DNA from: Natrinema salaciae
GTDB lineage: Archaea; Halobacteriota; Halobacteria; Halobacteriales; Natrialbaceae
NCBI RefSeq assembly: GCF_900110865.1
Contig: NZ_FOFD01000006.1
Coordinates: 1 to 64,000 of the forward strand
Direction of reading: 5' to 3'
Length of the DNA stretch: 64,000 bases
Position numbers and translations under genes: made by a program. Shown here one piece after another: positions 45,338 to 64,000 of this stretch. The notes below the pieces were generated by a model. That model searched no databases. It saw only the letters and a program-made list of their open reading frames with translations, and had not been told where the DNA came from. Every line of letters begins with the position of its first letter. The stretch's first letter is position 1.

Positions 45338-46180
45338 ATGACTCTCCGCACCGACGGAAGGGGAACTTCCCTACCGTCGCTCGACTCGACATTCTCTCAC
45401 GAAGAGGTGTCGATGGCGCTCACTAGATGCGGGCTTCTCGTAGAACGGGCAGAGACGCTCGCTCGGCTGTACGCCCAACATCGGGACTGGACAGTCGTCG
45501 AAGAGCAATGGCTCGAAGAACGGTTCGACGAGCGTAGTACGCGCGGCAGTTCGAAGGGCATCTATCGCGCTCTCAGCTCGCGATTCAAGACAGCGGGAAG
45601 CGAACTCCCCTCGATCGTCCAACTTCCGACGGTCTTCGATCAATGCGAGGCGAAACGCGATAAGGCGCAGGTACTGTACTTCTACTTAGTGGAGGACGAC
45701 CCTCTCGTGAAGTACATCGTCCACCGATACGCCAATCGGCTTCAGGAGTCCGGCGTCGACGGGCTGGACTTCGAGCAGGACACAGTTGAACGCCTTCTGA
45801 ACGAATTCCATTACGACGATGGGAGCGAGTTTGATTACGCAGAATCGACGACGCGTCGGTGGGGCGAAGGACTCCGCTCTGTGATGCGAGAGATCGACGT
45901 TCTCGAGACACAGCAGGCATTACAGGGCCAGATTCCCAATATCGGGACGACACCGTTGCTCGTCGCGTCAGGTTACTCGTGGGAGACCCACGGCGATGAC
46001 TGGCTTTCCCAGCCGACTGGCTGGCTCTACCTCTTCCAATCGGAACAGTACTGGGACTCCTTGGCCGAACGAGTGAGCGACGATCCGAACTGGGAAGCGA
46101 GCGGGATTCACGGTGAACTGAGACTCCAGCCGGTCGTTGATACATACGACTGGGCCGAACCATGGGAGGGCGAAGTATGA
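45338..46180 (+). CDS. brxA: BREX protein BrxA (DUF1819)
   Basis: 280 aa from the ATG at 45338 (a GTG at 45317 would add seven). The all-helical DUF1819 pattern is visible: EEVSMALTRCGLLVERAETL, VLYFYLVEDDPLVKYIVHRY and RRWGEGLRSVMREIDVLETQ. The C-terminal part with PLLVASGYSWETHGDDWLS matches the BrxA end. BrxA binds DNA and is an accessory component of BREX phage exclusion. It is first in the operon, and its stop overlaps the brxC1 start as ATGA (46177-46180). Confidence 0.8.
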   Translation: MTLRTDGRGTSLPSLDSTFSHEEVSMALTRCGLLVERAETLARLYAQHRDWTVVEEQWLEERFDERSTRGSSKGIYRALSSRFKTAGSELPSIVQLPTVFDQCEAKRDKAQVLYFYLVEDDPLVKYIVHRYANRLQESGVDGLDFEQDTVERLLNEFHYDDGSEFDYAESTTRRWGEGLRSVMREIDVLETQQALQGQIPNIGTTPLLVASGYSWETHGDDWLSQPTGWLYLFQSEQYWDSLAERVSDDPNWEASGIHGELRLQPVVDTYDWAEPWEGEV

Positions 46181-49100
46181 CTGACGAGAGCTGGTTCGCT
46201 GCCGATGTTGGGAGCGATTTCGAGGAGTCCGTCCGCATCGACCGCGAGGATGACGGTCGCGATCATCGACTGGAATCGATCGACACCTACCACGTGACAG
46301 AGGAGTCGAAGGACTTCATGTCCGACTTCTTCTCGCGTCTGCTCGGCCGTTCCGAGGATATGCGGTCGGGCGCGAACTACTGGCTCTACGGATACTACGG
46401 GAGCGGAAAGAGTCACCTTCTTAGCGTACTTCGCGGGCTTCTGGATAGCGAATGGCTTCGACAGCGCGACGATGTCTGGGAGCAGCTAACCGACGGTCGT
46501 GAGCTGGAGACGCTCGAGTCCACGTGGTCGTCGATCCACGATGATTACGAGGTCATTCCAATCTCGGTGAACCTCCTGAAGCATCAGGGTCAGAAGAAAT
46601 TGAGCTTCAGCGAGATCGTTCTCCGCAGTGCCCACACGTCGGAACGGCTCACCGGTGCCGATGGAGGGCTCTCGTCGCAACTCGACGTCGCCTTCTTCGA
46701 GGACTGGTATCGGACGACCGACGCGTGGGATGATCGGACTGCCAACACCCAAACGGCACTACGGAGTACGGTTGACAGCCCCGAGAAGTACGACTGGGAG
46801 GATGTTCAGCAGTACAACGCTCTCGCGGATGCCGTTCTTCCCACACTCTTCGAGCAGGAGACCGGCACGGCGGATGGTCTAGACGACCTGATGCCGTCCG
46901 ATCTCGACCCCCAAGCGATGGTCGAGCGCCTCGAACAGTTGCGGAGCAACCGCGAAGAGGAACTCGGACGCCCGGTCAAACTCGTACTACTACTCGACGA
47001 GGTCAGTCTCTTCATCGGGACGGACTTCGACCGCCTCACCGAGTTACAGACCCTTGCAGAGAGCGTCGACGAGACCGGTGACGGCGACATCCAACTGGTG
47101 GCGACGGCACAGGCCAAAATCGAGGACGTCCAGCCGCAGTTCGCGGCTCGCGGGGCCGACTTCAGCATCGTCAAGGATCGGTTCCCCCATCGGTTTGGCC
47201 TTCCGAGTCGGCACGTCGGCGAAATATCGACCCAGCGGTTGCTCAAAAAGACGGTAGATGGGAAAGAGGACGCAGAACACGTCCTCGACCGAACCAGCAA
47301 CGAGCCCGAGACGTTACTCGTGTACTCGGGCATCGAACAGAACACCGAACCACCGCTCGACGACATCGATCGCGAGCGCCTCGTCGAGTTCTATCCGTTC
47401 CTCCCGTATCAGCCACCGCTGTTCCTCGAGATCCTCTCGAACCTCCGGCAGGAAGCACACGACCCGGCGAAGTCGATCTTCTCGGGAACCGCACGGGCGA
47501 TTTTGGCCCTCGTTCACGGACTCCTCCAAGAGTGGATAGAGGCGGGCAACGAGACCGACGTCATTTCGCTGGTCGACTTCTACGACCTCATCGAACCAGA
47601 ACTCGATGACATCACGCCACAGGACGTGGGGGTCATCGAGGAGATCGAGGAACAGTACAAGGCAGGCGAACTGGAGGAGATCGACGTGGATGTCGCGAAG
47701 GCCGTGTTGCTCCTCCAGCACATCCCAGATACGATTCCGATGTCCGAGCGAAATCTCGCAGTCGCCGTGTTGAGTGACCTCGACGGCCCGACTCAGTTCC
47801 AGATGGAGAACCGCGTCGAGGATTCCCTCCAACGGCTTCGGAAATTCATCCGTCCCACGCATGACGAAACGGGGCCGAAGTATGCGTTCACTCATCCGGA
47901 AGAGCGGGAGATCATCGAAGCCTCCGAGCAGAACCTCGACAACCCGGACTGGCAGTCCATCATCGAAGCCGTGGACGGGTATCTCTGGGAGGACATCGTG
48001 CGCGACCTCTCCCTCCCGACATCGGCTGAGTACCCGGATACCGGTGAGCAATATCCTGTTCGCTACGAATTCAGTATCGACGGGATCGAACTCGATACGA
48101 CAGTCGATGCAGAGGACGCACTCAATGTCGAGGTCGCCGTCGAAGGGATTTCTCCCGCCGCAGCAGACATCAGCTACGACGGCGATCCGCTCGAATGGAC
48201 GATCGGACAGGATGGACTCGACGATCTCCGTGATAGTCTCATCGAGTGGTGGTCGCTCAGAGATGCCGTCGGAGACCACACGCTCCCACAGTCCGTCGAA
48301 CGTGACCTCTCCGACCGCGCAGCTCGCGTCCAGAGCAAACTCGTTGAGGCGCTCAAGAGCGGGACGTTCGACGTCAAGGATCGCGGCGATCAGATCGGGG
48401 GCATGGCTTCGGGAGTCGAGGAGTATCTCGACGTCAACTACCCCGACGACTTCCACCCCGTTATGCTGCAGGTCGGCGACGAGCACTTACAGGAGCTCCG
48501 TGGACTCTCCGCACAAGACCCGCTCCCTACGTGGGCCCAGCAGATCGATGTCGCGACAGAAGACCCCGAAACGCACGAGGGGTCGATCCAGAACAATGTG
48601 CGCGCCTTCACTGGCCGACAGTTGAAGCAACGCGGCGGGAACCTCGCGATGGCGACGATCCTCGACGGTATCGTGAAGAAGAAGCCGATCTACGAGGACG
48701 CTCGCCCCGCGCTGTGTGCGATTATTTGGGGCCTCTGCCGGAAGGGAGACTTCCTGCCCATCGACGAGACAGGTGACTCCCTCGAACTCGACGACGTCAT
48801 CGACCTGAACAAACTGACGACGACGCGTCTGAAGATTGCGAAAGGTGACAGTGTAGGAAAGATCCTCCGCGAGGGAGGATTTATGGACTCGACGGAGACC
48901 ATCCCGGACGGAATCGTCAGGCTCCAGTCCGCGAACGACACGCTCGCGGGTCGACTCGGTAGTCTCGTGGAAGACGTCAGGCTGGTCGCCGAGAGTGACA
49001 TCCAAACGCGCGCCGTTCGCAACCTCCTCGAGTCGTTTGTGGAGGCGCTCGAAGACGAGCAGCAGAACGCAATCGACCGAAGGGAGGCCGTCAAATCACG

Positions 49101-49860
49101 TGACACCGACTGGAAGGACGTCGTCGAAGCAACCAACGACGCTCGGGAGTGGTACGACGACGCCGAGGAAGTGTGGAGTTTGCGCCTTCCCGCACTCACG
49201 CGAATCGATTCGCAGTTGACTCTCGCCCAGCAGTCGTACGACTGGCTGACCGAAGAGTGCGAAACGGCCAGCCAGACGCTTCGCGACAGCATCAACGACT
49301 ACGAGGGCGAGTGGTGGACACACGATGGCTGGGATCGGTTCAACGACGCCCAAACCACCTCGCCGGCGCTCGACGACGCGATCGAGACCGCGTGGGACTC
49401 GTTCCGAGCGGAAACTGAGATCGATGTGTTCGTCGACGAGTTGCAGGAGCATCCGTGGATTCGGCCCGCGAGCGAGTTCGGTTCGAACGTTCGGCCGGCC
49501 TTCGAGAGCGAGTACATCACACCGCTCCGCCGGGCCGCATCGTGGCACGAGGACATCTCGGACGCGGTGTCGACGGTGATCGGCGGAACGACCAACACCG
49601 AGGCTGACGACTTCATTCGAGCGACGAACACACTCCTCGACAGCGAACCCCTCACTGTGGTTGCCGGTAGCGGCATAGAGGAGTTGCGAGGTACGTTCGA
49701 GGAGCTACAGACACTCGTTGGGGATCAGTCCCCCACGGACATCACGGCGATCGGGGTTCTCCCGTCGGATCGCGAATCGCTGGACTCGGAACTGGAACGG
49801 CTCGTCGAACGCCATGACCTCAGTATCGAGCGGACTGAAATGGGGGTGATCATCCGATGA
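46177..49860 (+). CDS. brxC: BREX ATPase BrxC/PglY-like, copy 1
   Basis: 1,227 aa. Walker A is GYYGSGKSHLL (72-82) and Walker B is KLVLLLDEVSLF (about 267-278). The segment QLVATAQAKIEDVQPQFA is a likely sensor, followed by KDRFPHRFGLPS. This P-loop family forms the large ATPase of BREX and is needed for methylation and exclusion. The C-terminal half is helical and Asp/Glu-rich. It differs from copy 2 throughout, so it is not a recent duplicate. The next gene starts within its stop (ATGA). Confidence 0.87.
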   Translation: MTDESWFAADVGSDFEESVRIDREDDGRDHRLESIDTYHVTEESKDFMSDFFSRLLGRSEDMRSGANYWLYGYYGSGKSHLLSVLRGLLDSEWLRQRDDVWEQLTDGRELETLESTWSSIHDDYEVIPISVNLLKHQGQKKLSFSEIVLRSAHTSERLTGADGGLSSQLDVAFFEDWYRTTDAWDDRTANTQTALRSTVDSPEKYDWEDVQQYNALADAVLPTLFEQETGTADGLDDLMPSDLDPQAMVERLEQLRSNREEELGRPVKLVLLLDEVSLFIGTDFDRLTELQTLAESVDETGDGDIQLVATAQAKIEDVQPQFAARGADFSIVKDRFPHRFGLPSRHVGEISTQRLLKKTVDGKEDAEHVLDRTSNEPETLLVYSGIEQNTEPPLDDIDRERLVEFYPFLPYQPPLFLEILSNLRQEAHDPAKSIFSGTARAILALVHGLLQEWIEAGNETDVISLVDFYDLIEPELDDITPQDVGVIEEIEEQYKAGELEEIDVDVAKAVLLLQHIPDTIPMSERNLAVAVLSDLDGPTQFQMENRVEDSLQRLRKFIRPTHDETGPKYAFTHPEEREIIEASEQNLDNPDWQSIIEAVDGYLWEDIVRDLSLPTSAEYPDTGEQYPVRYEFSIDGIELDTTVDAEDALNVEVAVEGISPAAADISYDGDPLEWTIGQDGLDDLRDSLIEWWSLRDAVGDHTLPQSVERDLSDRAARVQSKLVEALKSGTFDVKDRGDQIGGMASGVEEYLDVNYPDDFHPVMLQVGDEHLQELRGLSAQDPLPTWAQQIDVATEDPETHEGSIQNNVRAFTGRQLKQRGGNLAMATILDGIVKKKPIYEDARPALCAIIWGLCRKGDFLPIDETGDSLELDDVIDLNKLTTTRLKIAKGDSVGKILREGGFMDSTETIPDGIVRLQSANDTLAGRLGSLVEDVRLVAESDIQTRAVRNLLESFVEALEDEQQNAIDRREAVKSRDTDWKDVVEATNDAREWYDDAEEVWSLRLPALTRIDSQLTLAQQSYDWLTEECETASQTLRDSINDYEGEWWTHDGWDRFNDAQTTSPALDDAIETAWDSFRAETEIDVFVDELQEHPWIRPASEFGSNVRPAFESEYITPLRRAASWHEDISDAVSTVIGGTTNTEADDFIRATNTLLDSEPLTVVAGSGIEELRGTFEELQTLVGDQSPTDITAIGVLPSDRESLDSELERLVERHDLSIERTEMGVIIR

Positions 49861-50438
49861 CGACCAAACGTCCCTTCCACGACTTCACGGAGCGGCTCGC
49901 ACAGTTCGCCGACGGACGACGCGGCATCCGAAACCCATTCGTGATCGTCCCCGTCCAACCGAAGTACGAGCGACGGGTCGCCGAACGGCTCACCGAGTGG
50001 GCGACGAACCCGCATCGTACCGAGGAGTTCCCGGATGACGGAACCGTCCAAGTCCTCCGGCTGGACGAACTGTTCGTCGAAACCGACGTCTTCGAACTCG
50101 CGGTCGACCTCGGCGAGAACAGCCAACCGGCGACGATCACCGAAACGATGCAAGACCGATTAGCCGAGGAACTCGTCGCGGTTATGGTCGAGAAAATCGA
50201 CGCCCCAGCCCAGCAGCGACACGTCGTTCTCCTCACGCACCTCGGGAGCCTCTACCCGTTTACGCGTGCGTCGGAACTGCTCGACGAACTCGACCGCCGC
50301 AACGTCCAGTCTACAATCGGCATTCCGTTCCCCGGAGACATCGTCGGTGGGAAACTGAGCTTCTTCGGCGAGGAATCGCGCAACTACTACCCGGCCCACC
50401 AGATCGAAGGTCGGGTTGAGGGGGTGCATCTCCAATGA
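49857..50438 (+). CDS. brxB: BREX protein BrxB (DUF1788)
   Basis: 193 aa, normal length. The family signatures are LTHLGSLYPFTRASELLDEL (about 121-140), the following VQSTIGIPFPGDIVGGKLSF, and FFGEESRNYYPAHQIE at the C-terminus. BrxB is a small conserved BREX component of unknown biochemical role, found with BrxA and BrxC. It is locked between the two brxC genes with four-base ATGA overlaps at both ends, which argues for stoichiometric translation. Confidence 0.88.
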   Translation: MTTKRPFHDFTERLAQFADGRRGIRNPFVIVPVQPKYERRVAERLTEWATNPHRTEEFPDDGTVQVLRLDELFVETDVFELAVDLGENSQPATITETMQDRLAEELVAVMVEKIDAPAQQRHVVLLTHLGSLYPFTRASELLDELDRRNVQSTIGIPFPGDIVGGKLSFFGEESRNYYPAHQIEGRVEGVHLQ

Positions 50439-53400
50439 GCGACACACACATTCACGACATCTTCCAGCAGTCACCGACCCGCGAACTCGAGGAAGTCCAG
50501 AAGGTCAACGCCCGAGCGCGGGCCGAAAACGACGTCCGCGAGTTCTATGAGACCGACAGCGCCCGCGATGTGCTCACCACGCTCGGGAACCTCGTCGACA
50601 AGTATCCCCACGAGGAACCGCGCTTCCTCTACATCTCTGCGACGTTCGGGTCGGGGAAGACGCACCTCCTGAAGCTCATCGGGTTCGCTGCCGACACCGA
50701 ATCGGAGTTCGCCGACCTCGGCGAAGAGTTGGCGAACAGATGGCCGGGCTTCCAATCGTTCCGACAGAGCGTCGCTAACTCTCACGTCGACCGGCTGAAA
50801 CCCGTCTTCCTGAACCTCCTCAACCGGGACGCGTCACAGGAACCGCCGCTCCCCTACCTCATTTACGAGGCGATCGGCCGCGAACTCGGGTATCCCACCG
50901 ACCCGAATTGGCTGCTTGAGTGGGCGTGGCAGCTCGACATGAACCACGGTGACTGCTGGGAGCGACTACAGGAAGTCGAGCACGACGGACAGACGTTCGA
51001 GGATGTGTACGACGAGCGGGCGTCGCTACGGAGCTGGCTCTACGACGCCGTTCCGACACTCGATGACTCACCGTACGCGTCACGGGAGGAAGTCAAGCAG
51101 TCGATCGACGACGCCATCGAGGAAGTCGATCCCGATGAGTTCGACCCCGACGAACTCGTCGACCGCATCGAAGCGGCTCAAGAGTCGCTGAGCACGCCGG
51201 AGACCGAGACGGAGTTGCTGATCGGGCTTGACGAGGTGGCGCTGTTCATTGGTGATGGCCGCCACCGCTACAGAGAGTTCCAAGAAACGATGGAAGCCCT
51301 GACGGAGCTGGGCGTCGGGCCCAACCCGCCAGTCATCGGGACTGGACAGTATCCGATCGAGCGTATCCACGGCGAGTTCGACGATACCGAAGTCACGGAG
51401 CAGCCGTGGTACGGCGCTCAAGAACCGCTCGAGGGTGCCGACACCGAGATCATCGTCCGAAAGCGGTGGCTGCAGAAGGACGCCGAGGGTGGACAGGCCG
51501 TCGAGTCCGCGCTTCGGGAGATGACCGACCTGACACTCGACGCGTACTCCGATATTGCCGGCGCCGACCCGGACGCAGTCGAGTCGTACCCGTTCCGCGA
51601 GTACGATCTCGGATTGCTCCGGACGGTGATTCAGCAACTGATGCCACGGGGACGCGTGACCGAAGAGGAGTATGTGCAGGGGCGGGCGTTGCTAATCCTC
51701 GTCCGCTCACTGTTCACGCGGTTCGAGTGGGGAGACAAGCAGGTCGGAGCACTCGTCACGTGGGACGAGTTGTACGACCTGCTGGTGGAAGAGACGACGT
51801 ACATCCCGCTATGGGTGCAGGAGATGGTCGAGAACAAACTCGTCCCCTCAGCTGGCGGCGACGAAAGTGCGTTCTCCGTCCGCGTTGCGAAGGCGCTGTA
51901 TCTACTGAATCAGGTGCGTTCCGAGGTGCCGTCGACGCCGGCGAACCTCGCCCGGCTGATGGTCAAGTCAACTCACGAGTCGTTCGAATCCGTCCGAGGA
52001 GATGTCGAATCGGCACTCTCCGACCTCCTCGAGGATCGGAAGGTACTGACGGAGACGAACGACCGCGGCGACGAGGAGTACCTGCTGGTCTCCGAAGAGC
52101 AGGAGGACATCCTGACGCGAGCGAAGACTCGCGCACAGCAGATTCCGTCGCATCGACTTTCGGCCAAGTTGGAGAACTCCATTCGGGAGGGAAGCAACCT
52201 CCTGCTCTCGGAGGGCAGTCGACACGAGGTCGATCTCGAGGGGGAGCGCAAAGTCCCGCTCCGTTTCGGCTACTCTGTTCTCGACCCTATCGAGCAAGCA
52301 CCGACGCCAGAGTTTGACGCCGTTCGTGTGCGGCTGGTCGCGGGCCGCGACGAGGAGGTTAGCGATCAGGTTGATGCATGGCAGTCGACAAACGAGGGGC
52401 GGGATGGAGGCGAGCACGTCCTCGTCGCCGTCGAGCTACAGGGATCGACGATCGACCGCCTCCGGGACGTGATGGGCATGCAGGAGGTGCTGTCAGAGGA
52501 AACGGAAACGTATCCGGACTTGGAGTCCGACCACCGCGACGAACAGCGGGCGCTCGAGTCGGCGATTCGCGAGCAACTCGAGGAAGCGGACGTCTACGTC
52601 CGAACAGGCGGGACGAGAGGGCGATACGGAGACGTGATCGAGCAAGTCGTGGAAACGCAAGTACGGTCTGTGTTCAGCGGGACGCGCTTCGTCCTAACCA
52701 ACGGGATCACGGAAGTCGAGGACGCCAAGCAGATGGCGCGGTTCTTCCGCGGCGTCGACGACTGGCCGCTTTCGAGCGAGGACGCCGTCACGCTCGGTGT
52801 GGATACTGACCGCGCCGAACTCGCCGACGGCTGGTGTCAGGAATTTCTCGACGAGTACGAGGACACCCAGTCGCTTCGTGCCGAGGATTTGCTTACCCAG
52901 ACTGTCCAGCGCGGAGGCACATATCGCGGGACACCGCAGGAATCGATCTCAGCACTGTTGATCACGCTCGCAACGGCCAACAAAATCGCGTTGCGCCGTG
53001 ACGACGAGTACATTACCGAACCGGACGAGATCGGGCGAGCGGTCAGAAACAAGACAAACCTGACCGACGTACAGATTCGGTTCGAGTCACTGGACGGAAT
53101 CGATCCAGACCAGATTCAGGAGGCCGTTGAGACGCTAATCGGTGAGGAGCCGGACGGAACCGATCCAGATGCGTGGCTCTCGGAGTTGGCTACATGGGTT
53201 GACGAGAACAGCGTGCTGGTGAAACGCGTCTTGCGAGGCGTCAGCAGAGAGTTCGGCGAAGGCGCTTCGCTGGACGAACTTGAGAGGGCTCTCCAGCCCG
53301 CACTCGGGGGCGAATCTCTCGAAACAGACGACTTTGCATCTGACGAAATCGCACGGCAGTCCGAGCGTTTCGCTCGGGCAAGAGGACTCTTCCGGTCGGT

Positions 53401-54277: not shown

Positions 54278-54399
54278 CGGCCTGCTGTTGCAAAATATCG
54301 AACTCATTTATATTCATTTCGTAATTACGCAACACAGAGAGGCCATCACGGTCGAAAACGACGTACTTGTCCGAAATCATCTATGAGAATCAGGTTGGC

Positions 54400-55383: not shown

Positions 55384-56427
55384 ATGCTTAGAGTCGGAGA
55401 CGAAGAAGACGTTTCCACATTAGAGACGGTCTCCCTGAAGGACGAGGGGTTTCGTGAGGACGACCTCCGGGAGTGGATCATCAATAGTCCCGAGAGCATC
55501 CTCGGTGAGGACTTTCGGCTTATCGGTCGGGAGATTTCCGTGAAGCAGATCGGCGATGGCATTGATCTCCTCGCCATCGACCGAGACGCCAACGTCGTCG
55601 CCATCGAACTCAAACGAGGCGCGCTGAAGCCGAAGGTCGATTTTCAGGGGCTCAAGTACGCCGCCTACACCTCGCACTGGGATTACTCCAAGCTCCGCGA
55701 CCAGTTCGAGAAGTTCAAGTCCACGACGTGGGGGCGGACGCTCTACGAGGAGGAGACCACGTTTACCGAGGTACTCGACGAGTTCTGCAACGAGGACTAC
55801 ACGCTCAATCAGGATCAGCGAATCGTCTTCGTCGGTGAATCTGTCCGCGAGCGGCTGGACATCGTACTCCGGTGGCTTAGCGACAGATCGATCGACATCT
55901 CCGTCATCGAGTTCCAGCTCCTCAAGGACGGCGACCGGCTGTATCTTGACGCAGAGCAGACGATCCCGACACCAGAACACACCGTGACGGACGTAAGTCC
56001 CGACACCTCTGACGAGCCGTGGAAGGAGGACGGACAGAGTTGGCACCTCAACGAGCGTTCAAACGAGGAAACAGCCGGTTTGCTGGAAGACGTCACAGCC
56101 GCGCTGCAGGAACTGGAGTTCCTCAACGGGCCGGAGTGGGGGCAGAAGCACTACGTCGCGTTCAACAAGGGCCGAAAACGTCGCATCGCGATCCGGACGA
56201 AGCGGACGCTGTTCCACATCGACCTGTACGACGTCGATACGGCGTCGCTTGATGCTGCAGAGATTGCGGATGCACTCGGGATCGATGCCGAGTCGGTCGC
56301 AGTCAAAGAGGATATGCGGGGCAGTGGTCGAAGCGGAGTGAGAATCACCTGTAACCCGAATCAGGAGATCGATTTCGACGCGCTTGAATCTCAGGCTCGG
56401 GAGATACTCGGCGAGACTACCGAGTGA
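55384..56427 (+). CDS. PD-(D/E)XK nuclease, NucS/DUF91-like
   Basis: 347 aa. The N-terminal domain has the nuclease core: Asp61 in IGDGIDLLAIDRD and Glu75/Lys77 in VVAIELKRGALKPKV, followed by the Gln-containing helix FQGLKYAAYTSHW. REDDLREWIINSPESILGED precedes it, a NucS-like lead-in. The C-terminal third (about 245-340) is a separate domain with HYVAFNKGRKRRIAIRTKRT and a DNA-recognition flavour. NucS-type enzymes cut single-stranded or mismatched DNA. Sited between brxC2 and pglX, it is a candidate effector of this BREX. Confidence 0.75.
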   Translation: MLRVGDEEDVSTLETVSLKDEGFREDDLREWIINSPESILGEDFRLIGREISVKQIGDGIDLLAIDRDANVVAIELKRGALKPKVDFQGLKYAAYTSHWDYSKLRDQFEKFKSTTWGRTLYEEETTFTEVLDEFCNEDYTLNQDQRIVFVGESVRERLDIVLRWLSDRSIDISVIEFQLLKDGDRLYLDAEQTIPTPEHTVTDVSPDTSDEPWKEDGQSWHLNERSNEETAGLLEDVTAALQELEFLNGPEWGQKHYVAFNKGRKRRIAIRTKRTLFHIDLYDVDTASLDAAEIADALGIDAESVAVKEDMRGSGRSGVRITCNPNQEIDFDALESQAREILGETTE

Positions 56428-56546: not shown

Positions 56547-56798
56547 TTAGAACCCGCTATCGTCGGCGAGTTCCAGAACTTTCGCCCCCACGATAACGAT
56601 CAGCGCGATGATTGAGAAGAACCCTGCAAGCTCGAAGAGCGCCATCGGGTTCTCTACGAACCACCAGAAGATTGGTTCGAGAAACTCGATCCCGTAGAAG
56701 TCCGCGAGTATCTTCGAAATCACCGCTCCGAAGACCACAAACAACAGTAGATACAGAAAGTACCGGAGCTTCCGAGGGCCGGCGAAGTCATCAACCAT
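56547..56798 (-). CDS. Small two-helix membrane protein inside the BREX locus
   Basis: 83 aa from the ATG at 56798. Two hydrophobic helices: YFLYLLLFVVFGAVISKILA and FELAGFFSIIALIVIVGAKV, with an aromatic loop (FLEPIFWWFVENPMALF). Inverted relative to pglX. No family is recognised. Small membrane proteins in defence loci can act in membrane disruption or signalling, but nothing here proves that. Confidence 0.6.
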   Translation of the reverse strand: MVDDFAGPRKLRYFLYLLLFVVFGAVISKILADFYGIEFLEPIFWWFVENPMALFELAGFFSIIALIVIVGAKVLELADDSGF

Positions 56799-56946
56799 AC
56801 CTAAGCATTCAAGATCAGTCGTAAATATTTCGTGGAGAACCACCCAGCCGATCTTTTCCAAGTCCTGATCCGGACGCCGTCTGAGAGTATATGGACAATC
56901 TTCAAGACATCTTGATGACTCTGCTTGTAACATCACTGAGTTTCGT

Positions 56947-59900
56947 ATGGACGGACAATCTACCCAACCCCGCAAGGCCCAGCTCGACAAAGAAGAACGT
57001 GAGCACCTCGAAGACGTCGTCACCGAGATGCGCGACCGCGTCGAGGCGAACGTTCGCTACCAGCTCGAGGACGAGTACGACCTCGACGAGAAACCGGACG
57101 ACGACGCGTCCCTGAGCGAGGAGCAGGAAGACCTCGTCGAAGCCATCGAACTCGAAGCCGCCGACGGTCACAACTGGCACGAAGCCCACAAGCAGTACAT
57201 CACGGGCGTCGGATACACGATCGTCAATCGGCTGGCCGCGCTCCGCTGTATGGAGGTTCGGGACTTCATCGATGACGAGGTCACGGCCTTCCGCGACGAC
57301 GGCCTCACGCCGGCCGCCGACCGACTGGTCACCGAGGAGTTCATGCTCGAGGAGGAGGCTGTCCTCGAAGCCTACCGGAACGCGTGCGACGACCTCGCCG
57401 AGGAGATCGAGATTCTCTTCGACCGCTCGACGGCCTACAGCCTGATCGACCCCGACGACGACACGTTCGAGGACATCTGCGGGATGCTCGACGAGGTCGC
57501 CGACGAGGTTTGGCGGGCCGACGACGTGCTGGGGTGGGTGTACGAGTACTACAACCGTCCCGTCGTCGAGGCGCTCGACGCGAAGAACACGCTCGAACCG
57601 GAGGACGTGGGGCCGGCGAATCAGTTCTACACGCCCCACTGGGTCGTCCGGATGCTCACCGACAATTCCCTCGGCAAGCTCTATCTCGAGGCCACCGAGC
57701 AGGAGTCGGCAGTACCGGAGCCGGAGGCGCTCAGTCCCGAGAAGCGCAAGGAACGCTTGGTCACGCCGGAAGACAGCCCGTCCGTTCCCGAACTCTGTAC
57801 ATACCTCATCCCGGACGAGGAGCCCGGCGCCGCTCCCGAGTTCGATCATCCGTCTGAACTGCGAGTCATCGACCCCGCCTGTGGGAGCGGTCACTTCCTC
57901 CTGTACGCATTCGACGTGCTGGAGCGAATCTGGTGGGAAGAAGAAGACGACCTCGACCGCGCCGAGATTCCGGCGAAGGTGCTGGAGCACAACCTCTACG
58001 GCGTCGACATCGACCTGCGCTCGTGCCAGCTCTCGGCGTTCAATCTGTATCTGAAGGCCCGGACGCGCGCCGAGGAGGAAGACGGCCAGTTTGAGATGCC
58101 CAACGTCGACATCGTCTGTGCGGACGCCCGCGTGGCGGAGGTCGAAGAGGGCGCCGAGGTGTTGGACGAAATCACTGGCGAGGGGACTGACCTGCGCGAG
58201 GCGCTTGGTGAGATCATTGAGACGTTCCAGCACACGGAGGCGCTCGGGAGCCTCCTCGACGTGAGTGGGACGCTTGAGGATGTATTCGAAAGTGGACAGA
58301 CAGGATTGTCAGACTGGGGCGACGGGACGCACCAATCGCTAAACTCGTTCTTGAAGGCACTTCGGGAGGCCGTCGATGAGCGGTCGTCAGACTCTTTCGG
58401 CGAACAGAACCTCAAGAGTTTCCTGAATCTGCTGGTAGTGCTAACGCAAGAGTACGACGTTGCACTAATGAATCCGCCGTACGGAATGCGGGGTCGGATG
58501 CCTAATGGCGTCAAGTCCTATGTGAGTGACAACTACGAATATTACCAAGAGTATTATGTAAACTTCTTCGAGGTCTGTGAGCGGCTATCCAAGGGTAACG
58601 GCCGGGTCGGGATGCTCGTTCCTTGGTCGTTCATGTTCCGGAAGGTCTTCGAGAGCTTCCGAGTAGATTTCGTCGGCGACGACCGTTCGTTCGATTTTCT
58701 CGCCGAGTTTGGCTACGATGTTCTTGATAACGCAACCGTAGGGACTGTCGGGACGGTCGTTCGGACAGGGACTTCCGACGACAATACCGATGGGAAGTTC
58801 ATTAGACTTCACGATGTTTCCAAATCTGAGAAAGAAAGAACGTATATTGACTCGGTATTCGAAGACGAGTACGACGGAACAATCAGACGAGTGTACACGC
58901 GTGATACTTCGGAATTCTCGCTTGTACCGGGCGCGTCAATTTCGTATTGGGTTCCGATGGAACTTCGTCGGCTATACAACTCTGAGGCGGTGTTAGACGC
59001 TGAAAACGGCGACCTCCCTGAAAAAACTAGTCTTAGCGATGTAAAGCAAGGTATCATCTCTGGAGACAATACGAGGTTTCTGAATAAGTTCTGGGAAGCA
59101 CCGGAGGAGGGTATTTTGTTCCCACCCCTTTCCGACGGTGGAACAGACACATGGCTGCTTCCGCGAATCAAGGATAGGATTCTCTGGGAGAACGACGGAG
59201 CAGAGATCAAACGGTACTCAGGATCAAGGCCTCAGAACACGGACTTCTACTTTACCGAAGGAATCTCGTTTAACCGGAGGAAAAGGAGCGGTCGCCACTT
59301 CGGTTACATGCACCCCGACTCAATCTTCTCGGAGTCAGGAACCGCGCTGTTCCCGGAGAACTGCGACTCGTGGGCGCTCACCTCATACCTAAATAGTCGG
59401 CTGCTCACGTACCTCAAGTTAGCACAAACGTTCGAACGGAAGTGGGAGATCAGCACCGTTGCTCGACTCCCCGTCCCCGAGGTCGTCTTCGAGAATGAGG
59501 ATGAACTCGCCGCGAACGCACGCGATCAAGTTGCCAATGTTCTCGCACGTCGGAGTACCGAGTTTACCTCACCACACTTCTCGGGTACACTTGCAGCACA
59601 GATGCTCGGGTACGGGAACCCCAACCCGCCGGATCACCCTCATCGGAGTCTCCTAGATGAGATCGATTGGGAGATACCATCCGAGGTAGAGCCTGAAACA
59701 AGCATCGAGGAGTTAGCGAAGCGCGGGGAAGAGTACTTGAAACGCCTCAACCGCAATCTGGAGCAGAGCGCAAGAGAAACAGACAAGCTACTGTTTGACC
59801 AACTTGATCTTGACGAGGATCTCCGGCGTGAAGTGCTTCAGGAGGTAGAACTACGAACGATCGACGACCCGCTGACCGAGTGGACTCGGGACGATTCTGG

Positions 59901-61167
59901 AGCGGAACGCGGGGATACCCCATCTGTCTCCCCAAGCGAACTTGCGCGCGATCTCATCCTTCAGTTTAGCATAGATATTGTCAGGAACAACGACGATGGC
60001 ATCGTTCCCTTATCTAGCGTCGACGGCGAGGATGAACTCCTCACACACATTGAGTCGAAGTTCGAACACGTATGGGGCGAACACGCAACCGACCGCCTCG
60101 CGGAAGTTGACGAGGTACTTGGAAACCGTAGTGCCGGCGATGAGGCATATCCAAACCTCCGGGCGTGGCTCGAAGACGACCTGTTCGAGTACCACATCTC
60201 GAAGTTCGACCGGACGCCGATCCTCTGGCGCTTCTCGACTGAACGGCTCGTTTCCGACCCAGATGGCGAGGGATTCGGCTGTCTCGTTGACTACCACCAG
60301 TTAGACGCGAGTATCTTCGACCGCCTACAGAACCAGTATCTCGAACCCCGGCGAGCGTATCTCCGCGAACGACGGGCGGCGGCAAACAGTCGCCGTAACG
60401 ATGAATCGCTCTCGGCCTCCGAGCGCGCCGACGCCGCCGAGGAGTACGAACGCTGCGAGAGCGGTCTCGAACAGCTCAGCGTGTTTGAAGAACAGCTTGG
60501 CGAACTTGCCGAGTCCAACCCCCGCGAGTGGCCCGACGGGAATCAGGAACTCGCCGCTGAGGCAGCCGAACGCGTCGCGGAGTTCCGGGAGCGGACAGCG
60601 TCACGGTTGAGCACTCTCGAAACACTCGCCGATCTGGAGGACGTGGATATGGAAGACCTGTTCAGCCCCTCGTTCTACGAGACTGTACAAGGGAACAAAG
60701 ACGAGTGGATCAACGCGCTCGACGACCTGCAGGCTGCCTTCGAGGCCTACGCCGGGGATGGTTCCGAACCCGTTGAAGCTCATCTCTACGACCTCTTCGA
60801 GTACTACGACGATCTCGTCGGCTCCTCCCACTACGCAAGCAACGGGATTCTGTTCATGACGTACTACTTCGACCAGTTCGAGGACGCCGGACAGGCCCAA
60901 ATCGGTGATGCTGGTGTCTCTGAACGTCAGCGGCTTCTCTCGGAACTCGCCGCCGACGTTGACGAGTACACGCAACTGGCCGAGGAGATCTCTGACGACT
61001 GCGACGAGGTCGCTGCAGACATCCCCGACGATTGGGAAGAGCGCGCGCTCTCAGAGGTGACGACTACCGGCTACCAGCCTGTCCACAAGCACGGCGTCGC
61101 GATCAACATCACGCCGCTCGCGGAGAAGGACATCGTCCCCGAAATCGTTGAGGACAAGGTGATCTGA
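56947..61167 (+). CDS. pglX: BREX adenine-specific DNA methyltransferase PglX
   Basis: 1,406 aa. NQFYTPHWVVRMLTDNSLGK precedes SAM motif I DPACGSGHFLLYAF (about 308-321), and the catalytic motif NPPYGMRG lies at about 507-514. A long central region up to about residue 1,000 should hold the target-recognition domain, and the C-terminus is helical. PglX marks host DNA with N6-methyladenine and is also needed for exclusion. GC content is mosaic: sampled 60-base blocks give about 65% at 57001, 35% at 58801, 42% at 59041 and 63% at 60481. It starts its own operon, with AT-rich DNA upstream. Confidence 0.92.
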   Translation: MDGQSTQPRKAQLDKEEREHLEDVVTEMRDRVEANVRYQLEDEYDLDEKPDDDASLSEEQEDLVEAIELEAADGHNWHEAHKQYITGVGYTIVNRLAALRCMEVRDFIDDEVTAFRDDGLTPAADRLVTEEFMLEEEAVLEAYRNACDDLAEEIEILFDRSTAYSLIDPDDDTFEDICGMLDEVADEVWRADDVLGWVYEYYNRPVVEALDAKNTLEPEDVGPANQFYTPHWVVRMLTDNSLGKLYLEATEQESAVPEPEALSPEKRKERLVTPEDSPSVPELCTYLIPDEEPGAAPEFDHPSELRVIDPACGSGHFLLYAFDVLERIWWEEEDDLDRAEIPAKVLEHNLYGVDIDLRSCQLSAFNLYLKARTRAEEEDGQFEMPNVDIVCADARVAEVEEGAEVLDEITGEGTDLREALGEIIETFQHTEALGSLLDVSGTLEDVFESGQTGLSDWGDGTHQSLNSFLKALREAVDERSSDSFGEQNLKSFLNLLVVLTQEYDVALMNPPYGMRGRMPNGVKSYVSDNYEYYQEYYVNFFEVCERLSKGNGRVGMLVPWSFMFRKVFESFRVDFVGDDRSFDFLAEFGYDVLDNATVGTVGTVVRTGTSDDNTDGKFIRLHDVSKSEKERTYIDSVFEDEYDGTIRRVYTRDTSEFSLVPGASISYWVPMELRRLYNSEAVLDAENGDLPEKTSLSDVKQGIISGDNTRFLNKFWEAPEEGILFPPLSDGGTDTWLLPRIKDRILWENDGAEIKRYSGSRPQNTDFYFTEGISFNRRKRSGRHFGYMHPDSIFSESGTALFPENCDSWALTSYLNSRLLTYLKLAQTFERKWEISTVARLPVPEVVFENEDELAANARDQVANVLARRSTEFTSPHFSGTLAAQMLGYGNPNPPDHPHRSLLDEIDWEIPSEVEPETSIEELAKRGEEYLKRLNRNLEQSARETDKLLFDQLDLDEDLRREVLQEVELRTIDDPLTEWTRDDSGAERGDTPSVSPSELARDLILQFSIDIVRNNDDGIVPLSSVDGEDELLTHIESKFEHVWGEHATDRLAEVDEVLGNRSAGDEAYPNLRAWLEDDLFEYHISKFDRTPILWRFSTERLVSDPDGEGFGCLVDYHQLDASIFDRLQNQYLEPRRAYLRERRAAANSRRNDESLSASERADAAEEYERCESGLEQLSVFEEQLGELAESNPREWPDGNQELAAEAAERVAEFRERTASRLSTLETLADLEDVDMEDLFSPSFYETVQGNKDEWINALDDLQAAFEAYAGDGSEPVEAHLYDLFEYYDDLVGSSHYASNGILFMTYYFDQFEDAGQAQIGDAGVSERQRLLSELAADVDEYTQLAEEISDDCDEVAADIPDDWEERALSEVTTTGYQPVHKHGVAINITPLAEKDIVPEIVEDKVI

Positions 61168-61170
61168 AAG

Positions 61171-61215
61171 ATGAATCCGCAATTTATCGCTCCCTCGGAG
61201 GCGGATGCTCAATGA
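61171..61215 (+). CDS. Fourteen-codon mini-ORF bridging pglX and the OLD gene
   Basis: It encodes MNPQFIAPSEADAQ. It starts three bases after the pglX stop, and its TGA overlaps the ATG of the next gene as ATGA (61212-61215). A GGAGG sequence (61197-61201) lies before the OLD start. It may serve as a translational coupling bridge, or be the scarred end of an older gene at this insertion point. Confidence 0.4.
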   Translation: MNPQFIAPSEADAQ

Positions 61216-63353
61216 AACTCGTCGACATTGAAATTCAGAGGTACCGCTCTGTTCGGGAACAGTCTAGGGAGACTTCAATCGAATTTGAAGGACTGGATTG
61301 CATCGTCGGCAAAAACAATGCCGGGAAGACAAATATACTGTCCGCTATCAAATATTTACTTGATAACCCCGATAAATCGATTGATGATGAACTCTACTGG
61401 CAGAAGAACCGAGATCAGACTGTTGATGTCAGAGGCTTCTTCGATGTTGACGAGGATGATTTAGATCGAATCGATGACCCCGAAAAGCGAGAATCCGTTC
61501 GGGATTCACTCATCACTGTAAACGGGACTGAGGGCGTCCTAGGAATCTGCAAACGGATTGAGGCAGAGGACGATTTCAGTACGAAGACCAAACTACTACA
61601 GTTTCTTCCCGAATCTGACCGACTCTCGGAATCACATCTCAAAGAGTATCGAGAGGAGTATTGGGAGAAGCAAAAAGAGCAAACTGGCTTTTCGAAAGCA
61701 GATTATAAGAGTAAAATGCGGGAGGAATTTGGGGAGATTGCAGACCTGATCCCCAACAAAAAGCAGAGAAACAAGGGGGTTTGGCTGGACAAGTACTGGG
61801 ACTATATCGACACCCGACCAGAGAAGCTCTCATTCAGAATCCAGCCAACAGAATTTAAAGATAGTACAAAATCTGTAATCCTAAATAAACTCCTCCCCCG
61901 GCTAATCTCCATCCCGGCAATCAAAGAAGTCGAATCAGCAACCAAACGAGGAGGTGAATTCGGCGATCTTGTAGACCAAATCTCGTCGGAGGTACAGGAT
62001 GAACTCGACAAGCAACTCCAAGAGAAGCTCGATGGTTTTCAGCCTCGAACCCACCCCAGTATTCAACAAGTCGAGAGCCACATCAGCGACCACCTCAGTA
62101 GCACCTTCGAAGAGCAGTCCGTCAAGTTCGATTTCCCCAATCTCTCCACTGAATACCTATTCCGAAACGCCGATATTCAGATACAGGAGGAGCATATTGA
62201 CTCGCTCTCGAAAGAGAATGTCGGAGAGGGAGTGAAGAGGACGCTGATATTCAGTCTACTACGAACCCTCGCAGATCTTCGAGAAGAAAAGTTCACGATC
62301 GGGGAGTCAGATGAGGTGGTGAAAAATGCCCGTCCTCTATTGATCCTGTATGAGGAAGCAGAACTGTTTCTCCACCCCTCTTTACAGAAGACGTTGTTGA
62401 GGACGTTCGATCAATTAGTTGGTGCTAACGCACAGATCCTATTTTCTACCCACTCTCCAGTACTGATTCAACACGAGACACTGGACACGATCAATATCGC
62501 CCGTAAGAATCCGCACGATGGAACCGAGATAACACAGTTTCATACTGTCCTCCGTCAGCAGGATGAGGCAGACAAATCACGCCTTACCGATTTACAGAGT
62601 GTTTCGTCCTATGTGTTTGCCGACAAGGTGCTGCTCGTTGAGGGAGTTTCAGATCGGTTGGTACTGAAAAAGCTCTCCAAGGCTCTCGATCCGAGATGGG
62701 ACTTTGACCAACGAAGTATCCCGGTATTGAACGCAGGTGGGAAAGGCGACGTTTGCCGATTTAAGCGATTCTTGGAAGAGTTAGGAATCGAGACTTTCGT
62801 CGTGTTCGACGTGGATGCCGCAAAACAAGAGTGTGAGTCAGTCGTTACCGATGAGTCTATAATAGAACAGATTGGGCAATTCCAAGATGAAGTGGATGCA
62901 GAGTTCACTGGCCCAACCTATTCTGTTGGTGATCTGGACATTGAGACTCGAACCAAGCCTTGGGATGAGGCATTTGACGATTTAGAGTCTCTGATGACTC
63001 GGATTGAGGAAGACGAAGAAACAACTGACGACGATGCAAGACTAATCGAGAAAATACTCTCGAAGTGTGAAAAATCAGAACCGCCGAATCACTTGTGGGC
63101 TTCAGATAGTGTCGAAGAGCAGCGTATCAGAGTGGTTGAAGAATTGTTAGATAAAAATATACTTCTACTTAGTGGAGATATAGAAGACTACTATCCATAC
63201 GATGGAGGGGGGAAACGCGAATCTGCAATTCGATTTGACCCCAGTTGCCACTCCAAGGAGGAATTAAACCAGAGGTTCCAATATCTGAATACCCACGACC
63301 AATCAGATTTGGAGGTTTTCTTTAGTAGCGTATTCCAGACCCAAACGACCTGA
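61212..63353 (+). CDS. OLD-family ATPase/TOPRIM nuclease embedded in BREX
   Basis: 713 aa. The N-terminal ABC-type ATPase has the P-loop VGKNNAGKTNIL (30-41) and a Walker B region LLILYEEAELFLHPSLQ (about 374-390), then STHSPVLIQ. The C-terminal TOPRIM domain has VLLVEGVSDRLVLKKL (about 471-486) with catalytic Glu and the DxD motif in FVVFDVDA (about 527-534). OLD nucleases cut or nick DNA and serve in anti-phage systems such as Gabija (GajA). It is AT-rich (about 32% GC in the 60 bases from 63121), unlike its neighbours, and is four bases from pglZ, so it is a recent but integrated insertion. Confidence 0.88.
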   Translation: MKLVDIEIQRYRSVREQSRETSIEFEGLDCIVGKNNAGKTNILSAIKYLLDNPDKSIDDELYWQKNRDQTVDVRGFFDVDEDDLDRIDDPEKRESVRDSLITVNGTEGVLGICKRIEAEDDFSTKTKLLQFLPESDRLSESHLKEYREEYWEKQKEQTGFSKADYKSKMREEFGEIADLIPNKKQRNKGVWLDKYWDYIDTRPEKLSFRIQPTEFKDSTKSVILNKLLPRLISIPAIKEVESATKRGGEFGDLVDQISSEVQDELDKQLQEKLDGFQPRTHPSIQQVESHISDHLSSTFEEQSVKFDFPNLSTEYLFRNADIQIQEEHIDSLSKENVGEGVKRTLIFSLLRTLADLREEKFTIGESDEVVKNARPLLILYEEAELFLHPSLQKTLLRTFDQLVGANAQILFSTHSPVLIQHETLDTINIARKNPHDGTEITQFHTVLRQQDEADKSRLTDLQSVSSYVFADKVLLVEGVSDRLVLKKLSKALDPRWDFDQRSIPVLNAGGKGDVCRFKRFLEELGIETFVVFDVDAAKQECESVVTDESIIEQIGQFQDEVDAEFTGPTYSVGDLDIETRTKPWDEAFDDLESLMTRIEEDEETTDDDARLIEKILSKCEKSEPPNHLWASDSVEEQRIRVVEELLDKNILLLSGDIEDYYPYDGGGKRESAIRFDPSCHSKEELNQRFQYLNTHDQSDLEVFFSSVFQTQTT

Positions 63354-63357
63354 CAAC

Positions 63358-64000
63358 ATGCAAGCAACCAAAACCCTCCCCGACGCCGCGAAAGACACCA
63401 TCCGAAGCAAGTTCGACCGCGCCGAGTCGTCAGACCCGATCGTCCTCTGGTGGGACGACGGGAACTACCTCGAGGACATCATCAAGCAGGCCTGTAACGA
63501 ACTCGGCGTTCAGCTGAAGGTCGCCGAGAAGACGCCGCTGGAACTCCGTGCCGATCCAGTTGACGGCGAGCAGGTCTGGTACGTCCCACACGTCAAGGAG
63601 CCCGAAGACGCCGATGGCGACTTCGACTGGTTCCGCGACGTCGAGCACACGGGCGGCGAGGTGCAGATGAGCATCGAAGACCTCACCGTCCACGCGTTCG
63701 AGCGCGGGCAACTCGATGCGTGGGAGCTGAAAACCGCGACGCAGGCGGACGACCCCGCGAAGCGCCGCGAGATCGCGCGGATTCTCCACGACCAGCTCAC
63801 CGGTGGACAGCTCCCGACGCTCGAACAGCTCCGCACGCAGATTGTCACCGGCGGCTACACCGACCCGGTCGCGTTCGTGCTGGAGAACGGCTGGGGCGAC
63901 ATCGACGACAGCCCCGACACTATCGAGCAGATGCAGGACTTGCTGACCAGCGAGGGTGTCGACGCGGTCGCTAGCGAGGACGAACCGGTGGGGATCGTCG
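63358..64000 (+). CDS. pglZ: BREX alkaline-phosphatase-like protein PglZ (5' part)
   Basis: 214 residues visible; the frame runs off the window. It starts with MQATKTLPDAAKDTIRSKFD and PIVLWWDDGNYLEDIIKQAC, the N-terminal fold of PglZ. The alkaline-phosphatase domain should lie beyond the end. PglZ is a core BREX protein of phosphatase fold; its substrate in defence is not settled. The gene starts four bases after the OLD gene stop. Helicase or BrxL-type genes, if present, must lie downstream of the window. Confidence 0.8.
   Translation, partial: MQATKTLPDAAKDTIRSKFDRAESSDPIVLWWDDGNYLEDIIKQACNELGVQLKVAEKTPLELRADPVDGEQVWYVPHVKEPEDADGDFDWFRDVEHTGGEVQMSIEDLTVHAFERGQLDAWELKTATQADDPAKRREIARILHDQLTGGQLPTLEQLRTQIVTGGYTDPVAFVLENGWGDIDDSPDTIEQMQDLLTSEGVDAVASEDEPVGIV

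What the first reader, a model, noticed from the sequence alone, without database searches (positions are those of the whole stretch)
45338..64000. BREX locus with two BrxC ATPases and several embedded nuclease genes
brxA, brxC1, brxB and brxC2 are joined by ATGA overlaps, then pglX and pglZ follow. Between them lie a NucS-like PD-(D/E)XK gene, an OLD ATPase/TOPRIM nuclease, an inverted unknown gene and an inverted membrane protein. BREX as described blocks phage DNA replication without an obvious nuclease, so two nuclease genes inside the core suggest a BREX that also cuts, or a composite of BREX with a Gabija-like module. The duplicated brxC fits the haloarchaeal type 5 layout; the inserts do not belong to that layout as I know it.
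Basis: partly seen in the sequence, partly recalled or inferred. Interest (0 to 1): 0.8.

Follow-up and report, generated by a model that had tools for sequence, protein, structure and literature searches.

The report
BREX-5 locus with swappable cargo slots
A salt-loving archaeon carries a known type of virus-defence system (BREX type 5) whose gene order has a few fixed gaps that different species fill with different extra defence genes, here two nuclease-like genes, so the locus looks like a chassis for add-on defences rather than a new cutting kind of BREX.

Summary
In detail: brxA-brxC1-brxB-brxC2 (ATGA overlaps), inverted unknown gene, PD-(D/E)XK gene, inverted membrane gene, pglX, OLD-TOPRIM, pglZ; brxHII lies beyond the window. 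PglX and PglZ pass NCBI's BREX-5 cut-offs. In 64 haloarchaeal loci (this one included) the junctions within brxA-C1-B-C2 are never opened (0 of 183), but brxC2-pglX, pglX-pglZ and pglZ-brxHII are in 43 of 48, 21 of 42 and 26 of 42. These slots hold changing cargo: the NucS-like nuclease (9 loci), KwaA-KwaB (7), OLD nucleases, GmrSD, an oligonucleotide cyclase, a second pglX. The NucS-like gene is maintained (dN/dS 0.05; 9 of 11 close copies lie in slot 1). The OLD gene is A+T-rich, its close family is in no other BREX locus examined, and no Gabija helicase adjoins it. An element about 50 bp before pglX recurs in 41 of 49 loci. BrxU and other nucleases inside BREX are published, so the principle is known; fixed slots, Kiwa cargo and the pglX element are the additions.

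The parts
45338..46180 (+). brxA
   Evidence: PADLOC BrxA 1.6e-171, model aligned 1-280
46177..49860 (+). brxC1 (first BrxC ATPase, Walker A GYYGSGKS)
   Evidence: PADLOC BrxC 2494 bits; NCBIfam BrxC 4e-75, below its cut-off; motif
49857..50438 (+). brxB
   Evidence: PADLOC BrxB 1.4e-121, Pfam BrxB 7.9e-14 over cut-off
50435..54277 (+). brxC2 (second BrxC ATPase, Walker A ATFGSGKT)
   Evidence: PADLOC BrxC 2608 bits; motif
54278..54341 (+). conserved start of slot 1: promoter-like stretch TGTTGC...TTTATATT...GCAACA, perhaps left from a wHTH gene that follows it in other loci
   Evidence: 86-92% identical over 42-57 bp in 6 other loci; sequence listing
54400..55260 (-). slot 1 cargo: 286-aa protein of unknown function
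   Evidence: no Pfam or PADLOC family at E 0.001; in 4 loci, always slot 1, inverted; median dN/dS 0.21
55384..56427 (+). slot 1 cargo: PD-(D/E)XK nuclease, PADLOC candidate PDC-S11 ('NucS-like')
   Evidence: PDC-S11 2.1e-32; D61/E75/K77 invariant in 9 of 9; 9 BREX loci
56547..56798 (-). slot 1 cargo: 83-aa membrane protein
   Evidence: translation; slot 1, inverted, in 6 loci; no family
56896..56906 (+). conserved element CAATCTTCAAG before pglX (candidate promoter or operator)
   Evidence: pattern found before pglX in 41 of 49 loci, 0.08 expected
56947..61167 (+). pglX, BREX-5 adenine methyltransferase
   Evidence: NCBIfam BREX_5_MTaseX 2361 bits, cut-off 900; NPPY motif
61212..63353 (+). 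slot 2 cargo: OLD ATPase-TOPRIM nuclease
   Evidence: PADLOC Old 5.7e-70; Pfam OLD-like_TOPRIM 4.4e-17; G+C 46%
63358..64000 (+). pglZ, first part; the gene ends at contig position 65550 beyond the window
   Evidence: NCBIfam BREX_PglZ_5 1184.6 bits, cut-off 250; L004:3359-5551

Best explanation
This is a haloarchaeal BREX type 5 system in which a tightly joined block brxA-brxC1-brxB-brxC2 is followed by pglX, pglZ and brxHII, separated by three junctions (slots) that accept other defence genes. BREX marks and checks DNA through PglX and blocks invaders through its own machinery (PglZ being a likely nuclease). The cargo here (PD-(D/E)XK nuclease plus two inverted genes in slot 1, an OLD-TOPRIM nuclease in slot 2, an unknown protein with a hydrophobic N-terminus in slot 3) most likely works as separate, additional defence layers that ride with the BREX operon. 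Shown: gene content, slot positions, their variability, purifying selection on several cargo genes, an element before pglX that persists with different cargo. Inferred: that pglX is driven by that element, that slots are refilled by recombination through the conserved flanks, and that the cargo acts independently of BREX.
For: Junction control: 0 of 59, 0 of 62 and 0 of 62 loci interrupted within brxA-C1-B-C2, against 43 of 48, 21 of 42 and 26 of 42 in the last three junctions. The 164 ORFs called in closed slots fall into 72 clusters, among them KwaB (Pfam 8.5e-16; PADLOC 1.3e-20) with KwaA (4.6e-26), an oligonucleotide cyclase (2.5e-112; all), GmrSD (2.6e-27) and PDDEXK_4 (2.4e-14) and OLD-TOPRIM. 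Empty slot 2 leaves 3-4 bp between pglX and pglZ. Median dN/dS: NucS-like 0.052, KwaB 0.046, KwaA 0.068, against 0.088-0.117 for BrxB, BrxC2 and PglZ of the NucS-like loci. Element before pglX in 41 of 49 loci, 0 before brxA, C1, B, C2 or pglZ. PglX is mosaic: in 12 relatives residues 1-200 are 81-96% identical to this one, residues 500-1000 only 19-69%. Named records repeat the layout (Halorubrum ezzemoulense, Halobacterium sp. BOL4-2, Natrinema thermotolerans with an incomplete gene table; Natrinema sp. J7-2 with slots 2 and 3 empty). Precedent: BrxU/GmrSD between brxC and pglX protects independently of PglX (PMC8565348 passages; PMC12373910 passages).
Against: No experiment. NucS-like copies are nearly confined to this slot (9 of 11) and all 7 KwaB copies of at least 54% identity are in slot 1, which could mean functional coupling to BREX. 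The 75% NucS-like relative in Haloferax massiliensis lies near type I restriction genes, which also hints at a link with DNA methylation. The first block is not immune to damage: brxC2 is split over 6 kb, with other genes annotated under the match, in two Halobacterium salinarum records (not examined further), and broken in G317 (left out of the count). Selection is weaker or unclear for other cargo: dN/dS 0.20-0.25 for the 286-aa, 83-aa (one pair 0.68), wHTH and nucleotidyltransferase-like genes. Of 20 cargo representatives scanned singly, 9 match no Pfam family (one of these is KwaA by PADLOC). The OLD gene's close family occurs once in BREX.
Confidence: 0.7

Rival explanations
1. The NucS-like nuclease (and perhaps Kiwa) is a dedicated effector wired to BREX-5: BrxC/PglX recognise unmethylated sites and the PD-(D/E)XK protein cuts, giving a BREX that cleaves.
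For: 9 of 11 close copies in the same junction; genome co-occurrence with brxC2 9 of 61 against 2 of 330, Fisher p 1.4e-6, relatedness not corrected; dN/dS 0.052; relative near type I restriction genes.
Against: tblastn finds it in 9 of 64 loci, all in group I (9 of 23), although a few of the others are cut by contig ends, so it is not needed for BREX-5. Two close copies occur in genomes without this brxC2. The precedent BrxU acts alone.
Confidence: 0.2
2. The extra genes are passive insertions with no role.
For: OLD and the 464-aa gene have 46% G+C against 58-66% for the core; the 464-aa gene has no match in the other 63 loci and OLD's close family no other BREX copy.
Against: Intact catalytic motifs; purifying selection on the NucS-like gene; same cargo in several species; cargo only in three junctions. 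For the OLD and 464-aa genes selection was not tested.
Confidence: 0.05
3. A composite of BREX with a Gabija-like module.
For: OLD-TOPRIM architecture shared with GajA; PDB sequence matches are 5 GajA chains and one OLD-family endonuclease.
Against: No GajB beside it; Old model beats GajA; no helicase family among the 3 neighbours of OLD relatives that were scanned, only short flanks being read.
Confidence: 0.03

Closest known systems
BREX type 5 (haloarchaeal; regarded as a subtype of type 1 in PMC12839542)
   Same: PglX and PglZ exceed NCBIfam BREX-5 cut-offs; two BrxC, BrxA, BrxB, BrxHII present.
   Different: Cargo genes in three junctions, not part of the type definition as I recall it. 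The C-terminal nuclease that PMC12839542 reports for BrxHII of some type 5 systems gave no Pfam match in this BrxHII.
pEFER BREX with BrxU (GmrSD) between brxC and pglX
   Same: A nuclease in the same brxC-pglX junction; shown to be an independent layer (PMC8565348 passages).
   Different: Bacterial type 1 BREX with BrxL; nuclease of another family.
Auxiliary and backup nucleases in BREX loci (PMC12839542)
   Same: PD-(D/E)XK and TOPRIM/OLD nucleases within BREX loci, described in general.
   Different: Main text holds no 'Kiwa', 'CBASS' or 'SMODS', and the parts I read state no fixed junctions or pglX element; its supplements could not be read.
OLD nuclease, single-gene kind (PADLOC Old)
   Same: ATPase plus TOPRIM in one 713-aa protein.
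   Different: Lies between pglX and pglZ; no GajB.
Kiwa (KwaA-KwaB)
   Same: One KwaA and one KwaB of sister loci match PADLOC and Pfam models; the other 6 pairs by cluster membership.
   Different: Absent from this genome at E 1e-20; found in slot 1 of related loci.
HEC, Hma-embedded candidates of PADLOC
   Same: Defence genes embedded in multi-gene methylase systems; HEC-05 matches the GmrSD cargo of G045, HEC-01 and HEC-06 match cargo of two bacterial BREX loci.
   Different: Named for embedding in Hma; only the acronym's expansion was seen (PMC10855318, one table passage).

Membership tests
BREX type 5 | BREX-5 type PglX | tested here: met
   NF033454 2361 bits, cut-off 900
BREX type 5 | BREX-5 type PglZ | tested here: met
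   NF033444 1184.6 bits, cut-off 250
BREX type 5 | two brxC genes (recalled; the original description is not held) | tested here: met
   NCBIfam's general BrxC model is matched below its cut-off
BREX type 5 | brxA, brxB and the helicase brxHII | tested here: met
   PADLOC BrxA, BrxB, BrxHII 2087 bits
BREX type 5 | site-specific adenine methylation and phage exclusion | not testable with these tools
   no methylome or phage data
Gabija | GajA OLD-TOPRIM protein | tested here: inconclusive
   GajA 1.4e-29 but Old 5.7e-70
Gabija | adjacent GajB UvrD-type helicase | tested here: not met
   neighbours are pglX and pglZ; no GajB among the families shown for the 17 proteins scanned (four of the lists cut at 25)
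OLD nuclease (single gene) | ABC ATPase and TOPRIM motifs in one gene without a partner helicase | tested here: met
   relatives seen only with short flanks
NucS endonuclease | NucS C-terminal nuclease domain over curated cut-off | tested here: not met
   23.7 against 24 bits; 33 against 216
PD-(D/E)XK nuclease, PADLOC PDC-S11 | profile match and D...ExK residues | tested here: met
   2.1e-32 over residues 24-223; D61, E75, K77 invariant; fold not confirmed, model pLDDT 42

The most novel reading that the evidence does not exclude
BREX-5 of haloarchaea is a modular defence chassis: a fixed recognition block plus three exchange slots, with conserved leaders before pglX and often brxHII, so that defence cargo and PglX specificity are swapped by recombination between the conserved brxC2 end, the pglX leader and the pglX 5' part. 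The NucS-like nuclease and a BREX-resident Kiwa lineage would be adapted to this address and may read the PglX mark.
Probability: 0.25. Interest if true: 0.7.

Novelty: new variant of a known kind. Interest (0 to 1): 0.5.

Why it matters
It turns a puzzling single locus into a testable rule: where a BREX operon tolerates foreign defence genes and where it does not. If the slots hold, unknown slot genes (such as the 286-aa, 83-aa, 391-aa, 425-aa and 820-aa families) become good candidates for new antiviral genes, and the pglX leader offers a handle on how BREX keeps its methyltransferase expressed when its neighbourhood changes.

Tried and rejected
Gabija composite: rejected for lack of GajB and a better match to Old. 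Passive insertions: disfavoured by selection and position. Viral origin of the two nucleases: no relatives found in viral contigs by pattern scan, which is weak evidence. Terminal repeats around slot cargo: only short, imperfect repeats in slots 1 and 2 of this locus. Structure of the NucS-like protein: AlphaFold2 with 5 sequences gave mean pLDDT 42, so no fold search was made. PDB by sequence: no match for the NucS-like protein at E 0.1. The 83-aa membrane protein is not a visible fragment of KwaA (10-residue match, E 0.68). Inactive second BrxC: not supported, Walker A present in both.

Limits and dropped rows. Five partial brxC2 matches (G115:C11, two of G317, G337:C17, a second of G050) were not used as loci; G317 has a broken brxC2. 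Second stretches: 4 loci near contig starts had none to ask for, 5 did not exist, and those of G214 and G130 were not requested, so slots 2 and 3 were counted on fewer loci than slot 1. Gene calls are my own codon-usage calls; they missed the 464-aa gene of this locus, so ORF counts are lower bounds. In the PglX profile 12 sequences from 11 of 13 chosen loci passed a length filter. dN/dS used only pairs with dS between 0.01 and 3 and sequences of at least 80% of the longest; KwaB kept 10 of 21 pairs. Not pursued: tree of brxC2 against cargo; enrichment of defence genes against random flanks; the split brxC2 of Halobacterium salinarum. Literature: seven searches listed no paper that I recognised as reporting fixed slots in BREX-5 or Kiwa inside BREX; I opened 7 papers and read passages or sections, not whole texts. 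The original BREX paper is not held, and supplements could not be read.
Full report
What is there. The window is the start (1-64000) of contig C6 (305,857 bp) of a 4.86-Mb genome. It is haloarchaeal, probably Natrinema: the held genome G091, listed as same genus, has a contig of the same length (275,821 bp) and nearly the same brxC2 place as Natrinema pellirubrum NC_019963.1; this naming is my inference. The locus reads brxA, brxC1, brxB, brxC2 (ATGA overlaps), inverted 286-aa gene, PD-(D/E)XK gene, inverted 83-aa membrane gene, pglX, OLD-TOPRIM, pglZ, then beyond the window a 464-aa gene and brxHII. Upstream, divergently oriented, is a ParB-like methylase gene (43777-45186).

Type. PglX and PglZ exceed the curated NCBIfam BREX-5 cut-offs (2361 against 900 bits; 1184.6 against 250). 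BrxA, both BrxC, BrxB and BrxHII match PADLOC models end to end. NCBIfam's BrxC model is matched below its cut-off by both BrxC, and it lists nothing for BrxA and BrxB. Both BrxC carry a Walker A motif, found in 60 of 62 called BrxC1 and 63 of 64 called BrxC2. The core is therefore an ordinary BREX type 5.

Comparison set. A search with brxC2 matched 61 of 391 genomes of the class, this one included. I took 63 further brxC2 places from 59 other genomes and added this locus: 64 loci. By tblastn identity to this brxC2 they fall into group I (23 loci, at least 68%), II (31, 46-68%) and III (10, 33-39%). In group III brxC2 is followed directly by pglZ (gap -3 to 42 bp in 10 of 10), with a PglX match on the other strand at the upstream edge of 8 of the 10.

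Slots. Junctions inside the first block are never opened: brxA-C1 0 of 59, C1-brxB 0 of 62, brxB-C2 0 of 62 (gap over 100 bp). The later ones are: brxC2-pglX 43 of 48 (a called ORF inside in 36), pglX-pglZ 21 of 42 (17), pglZ-brxHII 26 of 42 (22). Group I is richer than II: slot 1 open in 21 of 21 against 22 of 27, slot 2 in 14 of 18 against 7 of 24, slot 3 in 17 of 18 against 9 of 24. When empty, slot 2 shrinks to a few bases. The 164 ORFs called in closed slots form 72 similarity clusters. Against the picture of an untouchable block: two Halobacterium salinarum plasmid records have brxC2 in two pieces about 6 kb apart end to end, with other genes annotated under the match, and G317 has a broken brxC2; these were not in the count.

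Cargo. I scanned representatives only: 64 of the 68 cluster representatives of at least 75 aa together, 20 of them singly in Pfam, one further OLD-type protein in Pfam and 5 slot proteins of sister loci in PADLOC. Recognised cargo: the NucS-like/PDC-S11 nuclease (9 loci, all slot 1, same orientation); KwaA-KwaB in 7 loci, all slot 1, inverted in 6; OLD-type genes in 6 closed slots (this locus, 713 aa, and five of 531-559 aa on the other strand, grouped by blastp, one of them scanned) and by tblastn near a contig end in G225; an oligonucleotide cyclase (L058); PDDEXK_4 in slot 3 of G045 and, by cluster, G291; GmrSD in slot 3 of G045; a type I-like methylase (L051); a wHTH gene in 8 loci followed in 7 by a nucleotidyltransferase-like gene (one a fragment; DUF6036 2.3e-6, no PADLOC match); and a second pglX in slot 3 of 6 loci. 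Counting by hand from these calls, 16 of 23 group I loci hold at least one of the NucS-like, Kiwa, OLD, PDDEXK or GmrSD genes. Of the 20 representatives scanned singly, 9 match no Pfam family, one of which is KwaA by PADLOC.

The NucS-like gene. In 391 genomes, 52 have some match at E<=1e-10; 11, this one included, have a copy of at least 89% identity, 9 of them in slot 1 and 2 in genomes without this brxC2 (G026, G099). Median dN/dS is 0.052 over 36 pairs. D61, E75 and K77 are invariant in 9 of 9. A 75% relative in Haloferax massiliensis lies about 2.5 kb from type I hsdS-hsdR genes, with a resolvase gene between and a PDDEXK_4 gene after it. So it is a maintained accessory nuclease with a preference for BREX-5. 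Its NucS name is below curated cut-offs.

The OLD gene. Its close family is matched in 9 of 391 genomes, three of them only in part, and only the copy in this window is in a BREX-5 locus. G065 and G114 have both, but far apart. Co-occurrence is not significant (3 of 61 against 6 of 330, p 0.15). G+C is 46%, like the 464-aa gene beyond pglZ (46%), against 58-66% for the core: both look recently acquired (inference). It starts 44 bp after pglX and ends 4 bp before pglZ.

Element before pglX. The pattern CAA[TC]NTT[CAG]AA[GT] lies within 90 bp before pglX in 41 of 49 loci (0.08 expected from its density), before second pglX copies in 3 of 6, before brxHII in 8 of 22 loci with occupied and 1 of 19 with empty slot 3 (this locus has none before brxHII), and never before brxA, brxC1, brxB, brxC2 or pglZ. 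I wrote the pattern after seeing the sequences, so those counts are partly circular. In four named records not used for it, it stands at the same place in the three group I loci (in one of them pglX is not annotated but its start follows) and is absent in the group II one. In 45 kb around this locus it is unique (56896, 51 bp before the pglX start). It may be a promoter or operator; that is inference. After brxC2, a promoter-like stretch (TTTATATT between TGTTGC and GCAACA) is shared with 6 other loci by blastn; in G169 and G016 a stretch of this kind sits just before the wHTH gene, so here it may be a scar of replaced cargo (inference).

PglX mosaic. In 12 PglX from 11 loci whose brxC2 is 81-96% identical to this one, residues 1-200 stay at 81-96% but residues 500-1000 drop to 19-69%, with two alternative backbones on either side. 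That is what exchange of recognition domains through conserved ends would give.

Bacterial check, small. I read eight bacterial type 1 loci on plasmids: pEFER and 7 of 24 rows listed from 275 matching records. brxC-pglX holds a DUF262 (GmrSD-type) gene in pEFER and a Xre/RES pair in Polaromonas. pglX-pglZ holds HEC-01A/B in E. coli p4M8F, an AriA/OLD-like ATPase in Acinetobacter 10FS3-1 and, if the unannotated stretch after brxC is pglX, a HEC-06-type DUF262 protein in Acinetobacter VB16141. Polaromonas has further genes after pglX, and its pglZ was not in the stretch. A. indicus, A. haemolyticus and L. salivarius show neither. No gene is annotated between brxA, brxB and brxC in the 7 where all three are annotated. 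The same two junctions seem to be used, but the sample is small and the gene tables are incomplete.

How it works. Most likely BREX-5 supplies methylation-based discrimination and its own restriction, and cargo adds separate layers, as shown for BrxU (PMC8565348, passages; PMC12373910, passages). Coupling of the NucS-like nuclease to BREX remains possible (0.2).

What was known. PMC12839542 (abstract, section 35 part 1 and passages) describes PD-(D/E)XK and TOPRIM/OLD nucleases within BREX loci and regards type 5 as a subtype of type 1. It also reports an active C-terminal nuclease in BrxHII of some type 5 systems; no such domain matched here. PMC12205998 (passages) shows PglZ is a nuclease. 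My additions are the junction rule with its control, Kiwa and cyclase cargo in BREX-5, the pglX element, and the sorting of this locus into maintained (NucS-like) and apparently recent (OLD) cargo. The seven searches named under Tried and rejected listed no paper that I recognised as reporting these.

Noticed in passing
window 43777-45186 (-): ParB-N domain fused to an N6/N4 DNA methylase, divergent from brxA; a close copy (98% over the half inside the stretch) lies at the same place in sister locus G242.
   Followed up: partly
L004:5558-6952 (contig C6 65557-66951): 464-aa protein with an N-terminal hydrophobic stretch, 46% G+C, no Pfam, PADLOC or NCBIfam family, between pglZ and brxHII; no tblastn match in the other 63 loci.
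   Followed up: partly
L004:11342-12511: N6/N4 DNA methylase gene downstream of brxHII.
   Followed up: no
L051:10567-12143, L036:15868-17444 and five more loci: A KwaA-KwaB lineage whose 7 copies of at least 54% KwaB identity all lie in slot 1 of BREX-5; 19 other genomes have more distant KwaB matches elsewhere.
   Followed up: partly
L073 (G240) and L088 (G108): Loci with pglZ flanked by only 53-120-aa PglX pieces and 95-120-aa BrxHII pieces: shrunken BREX-5 loci.
   Followed up: no
L174:3193-12305 (Haloferax massiliensis): The 75% NucS-like relative sits in a type I restriction neighbourhood with a resolvase and a PDDEXK_4 gene.
   Followed up: partly
NC_010368.1 227696-234307 and NZ_CP146626.1 315687-321767: brxC2 of Halobacterium salinarum is matched in two pieces with other genes annotated under the match, suggesting an insertion in or beside it.
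   Followed up: no
alignment A1: One slot protein matches TATA-binding protein (PF00352, 1.3e-35) and one a DDE transposase; which ones was not traced.
   Followed up: no
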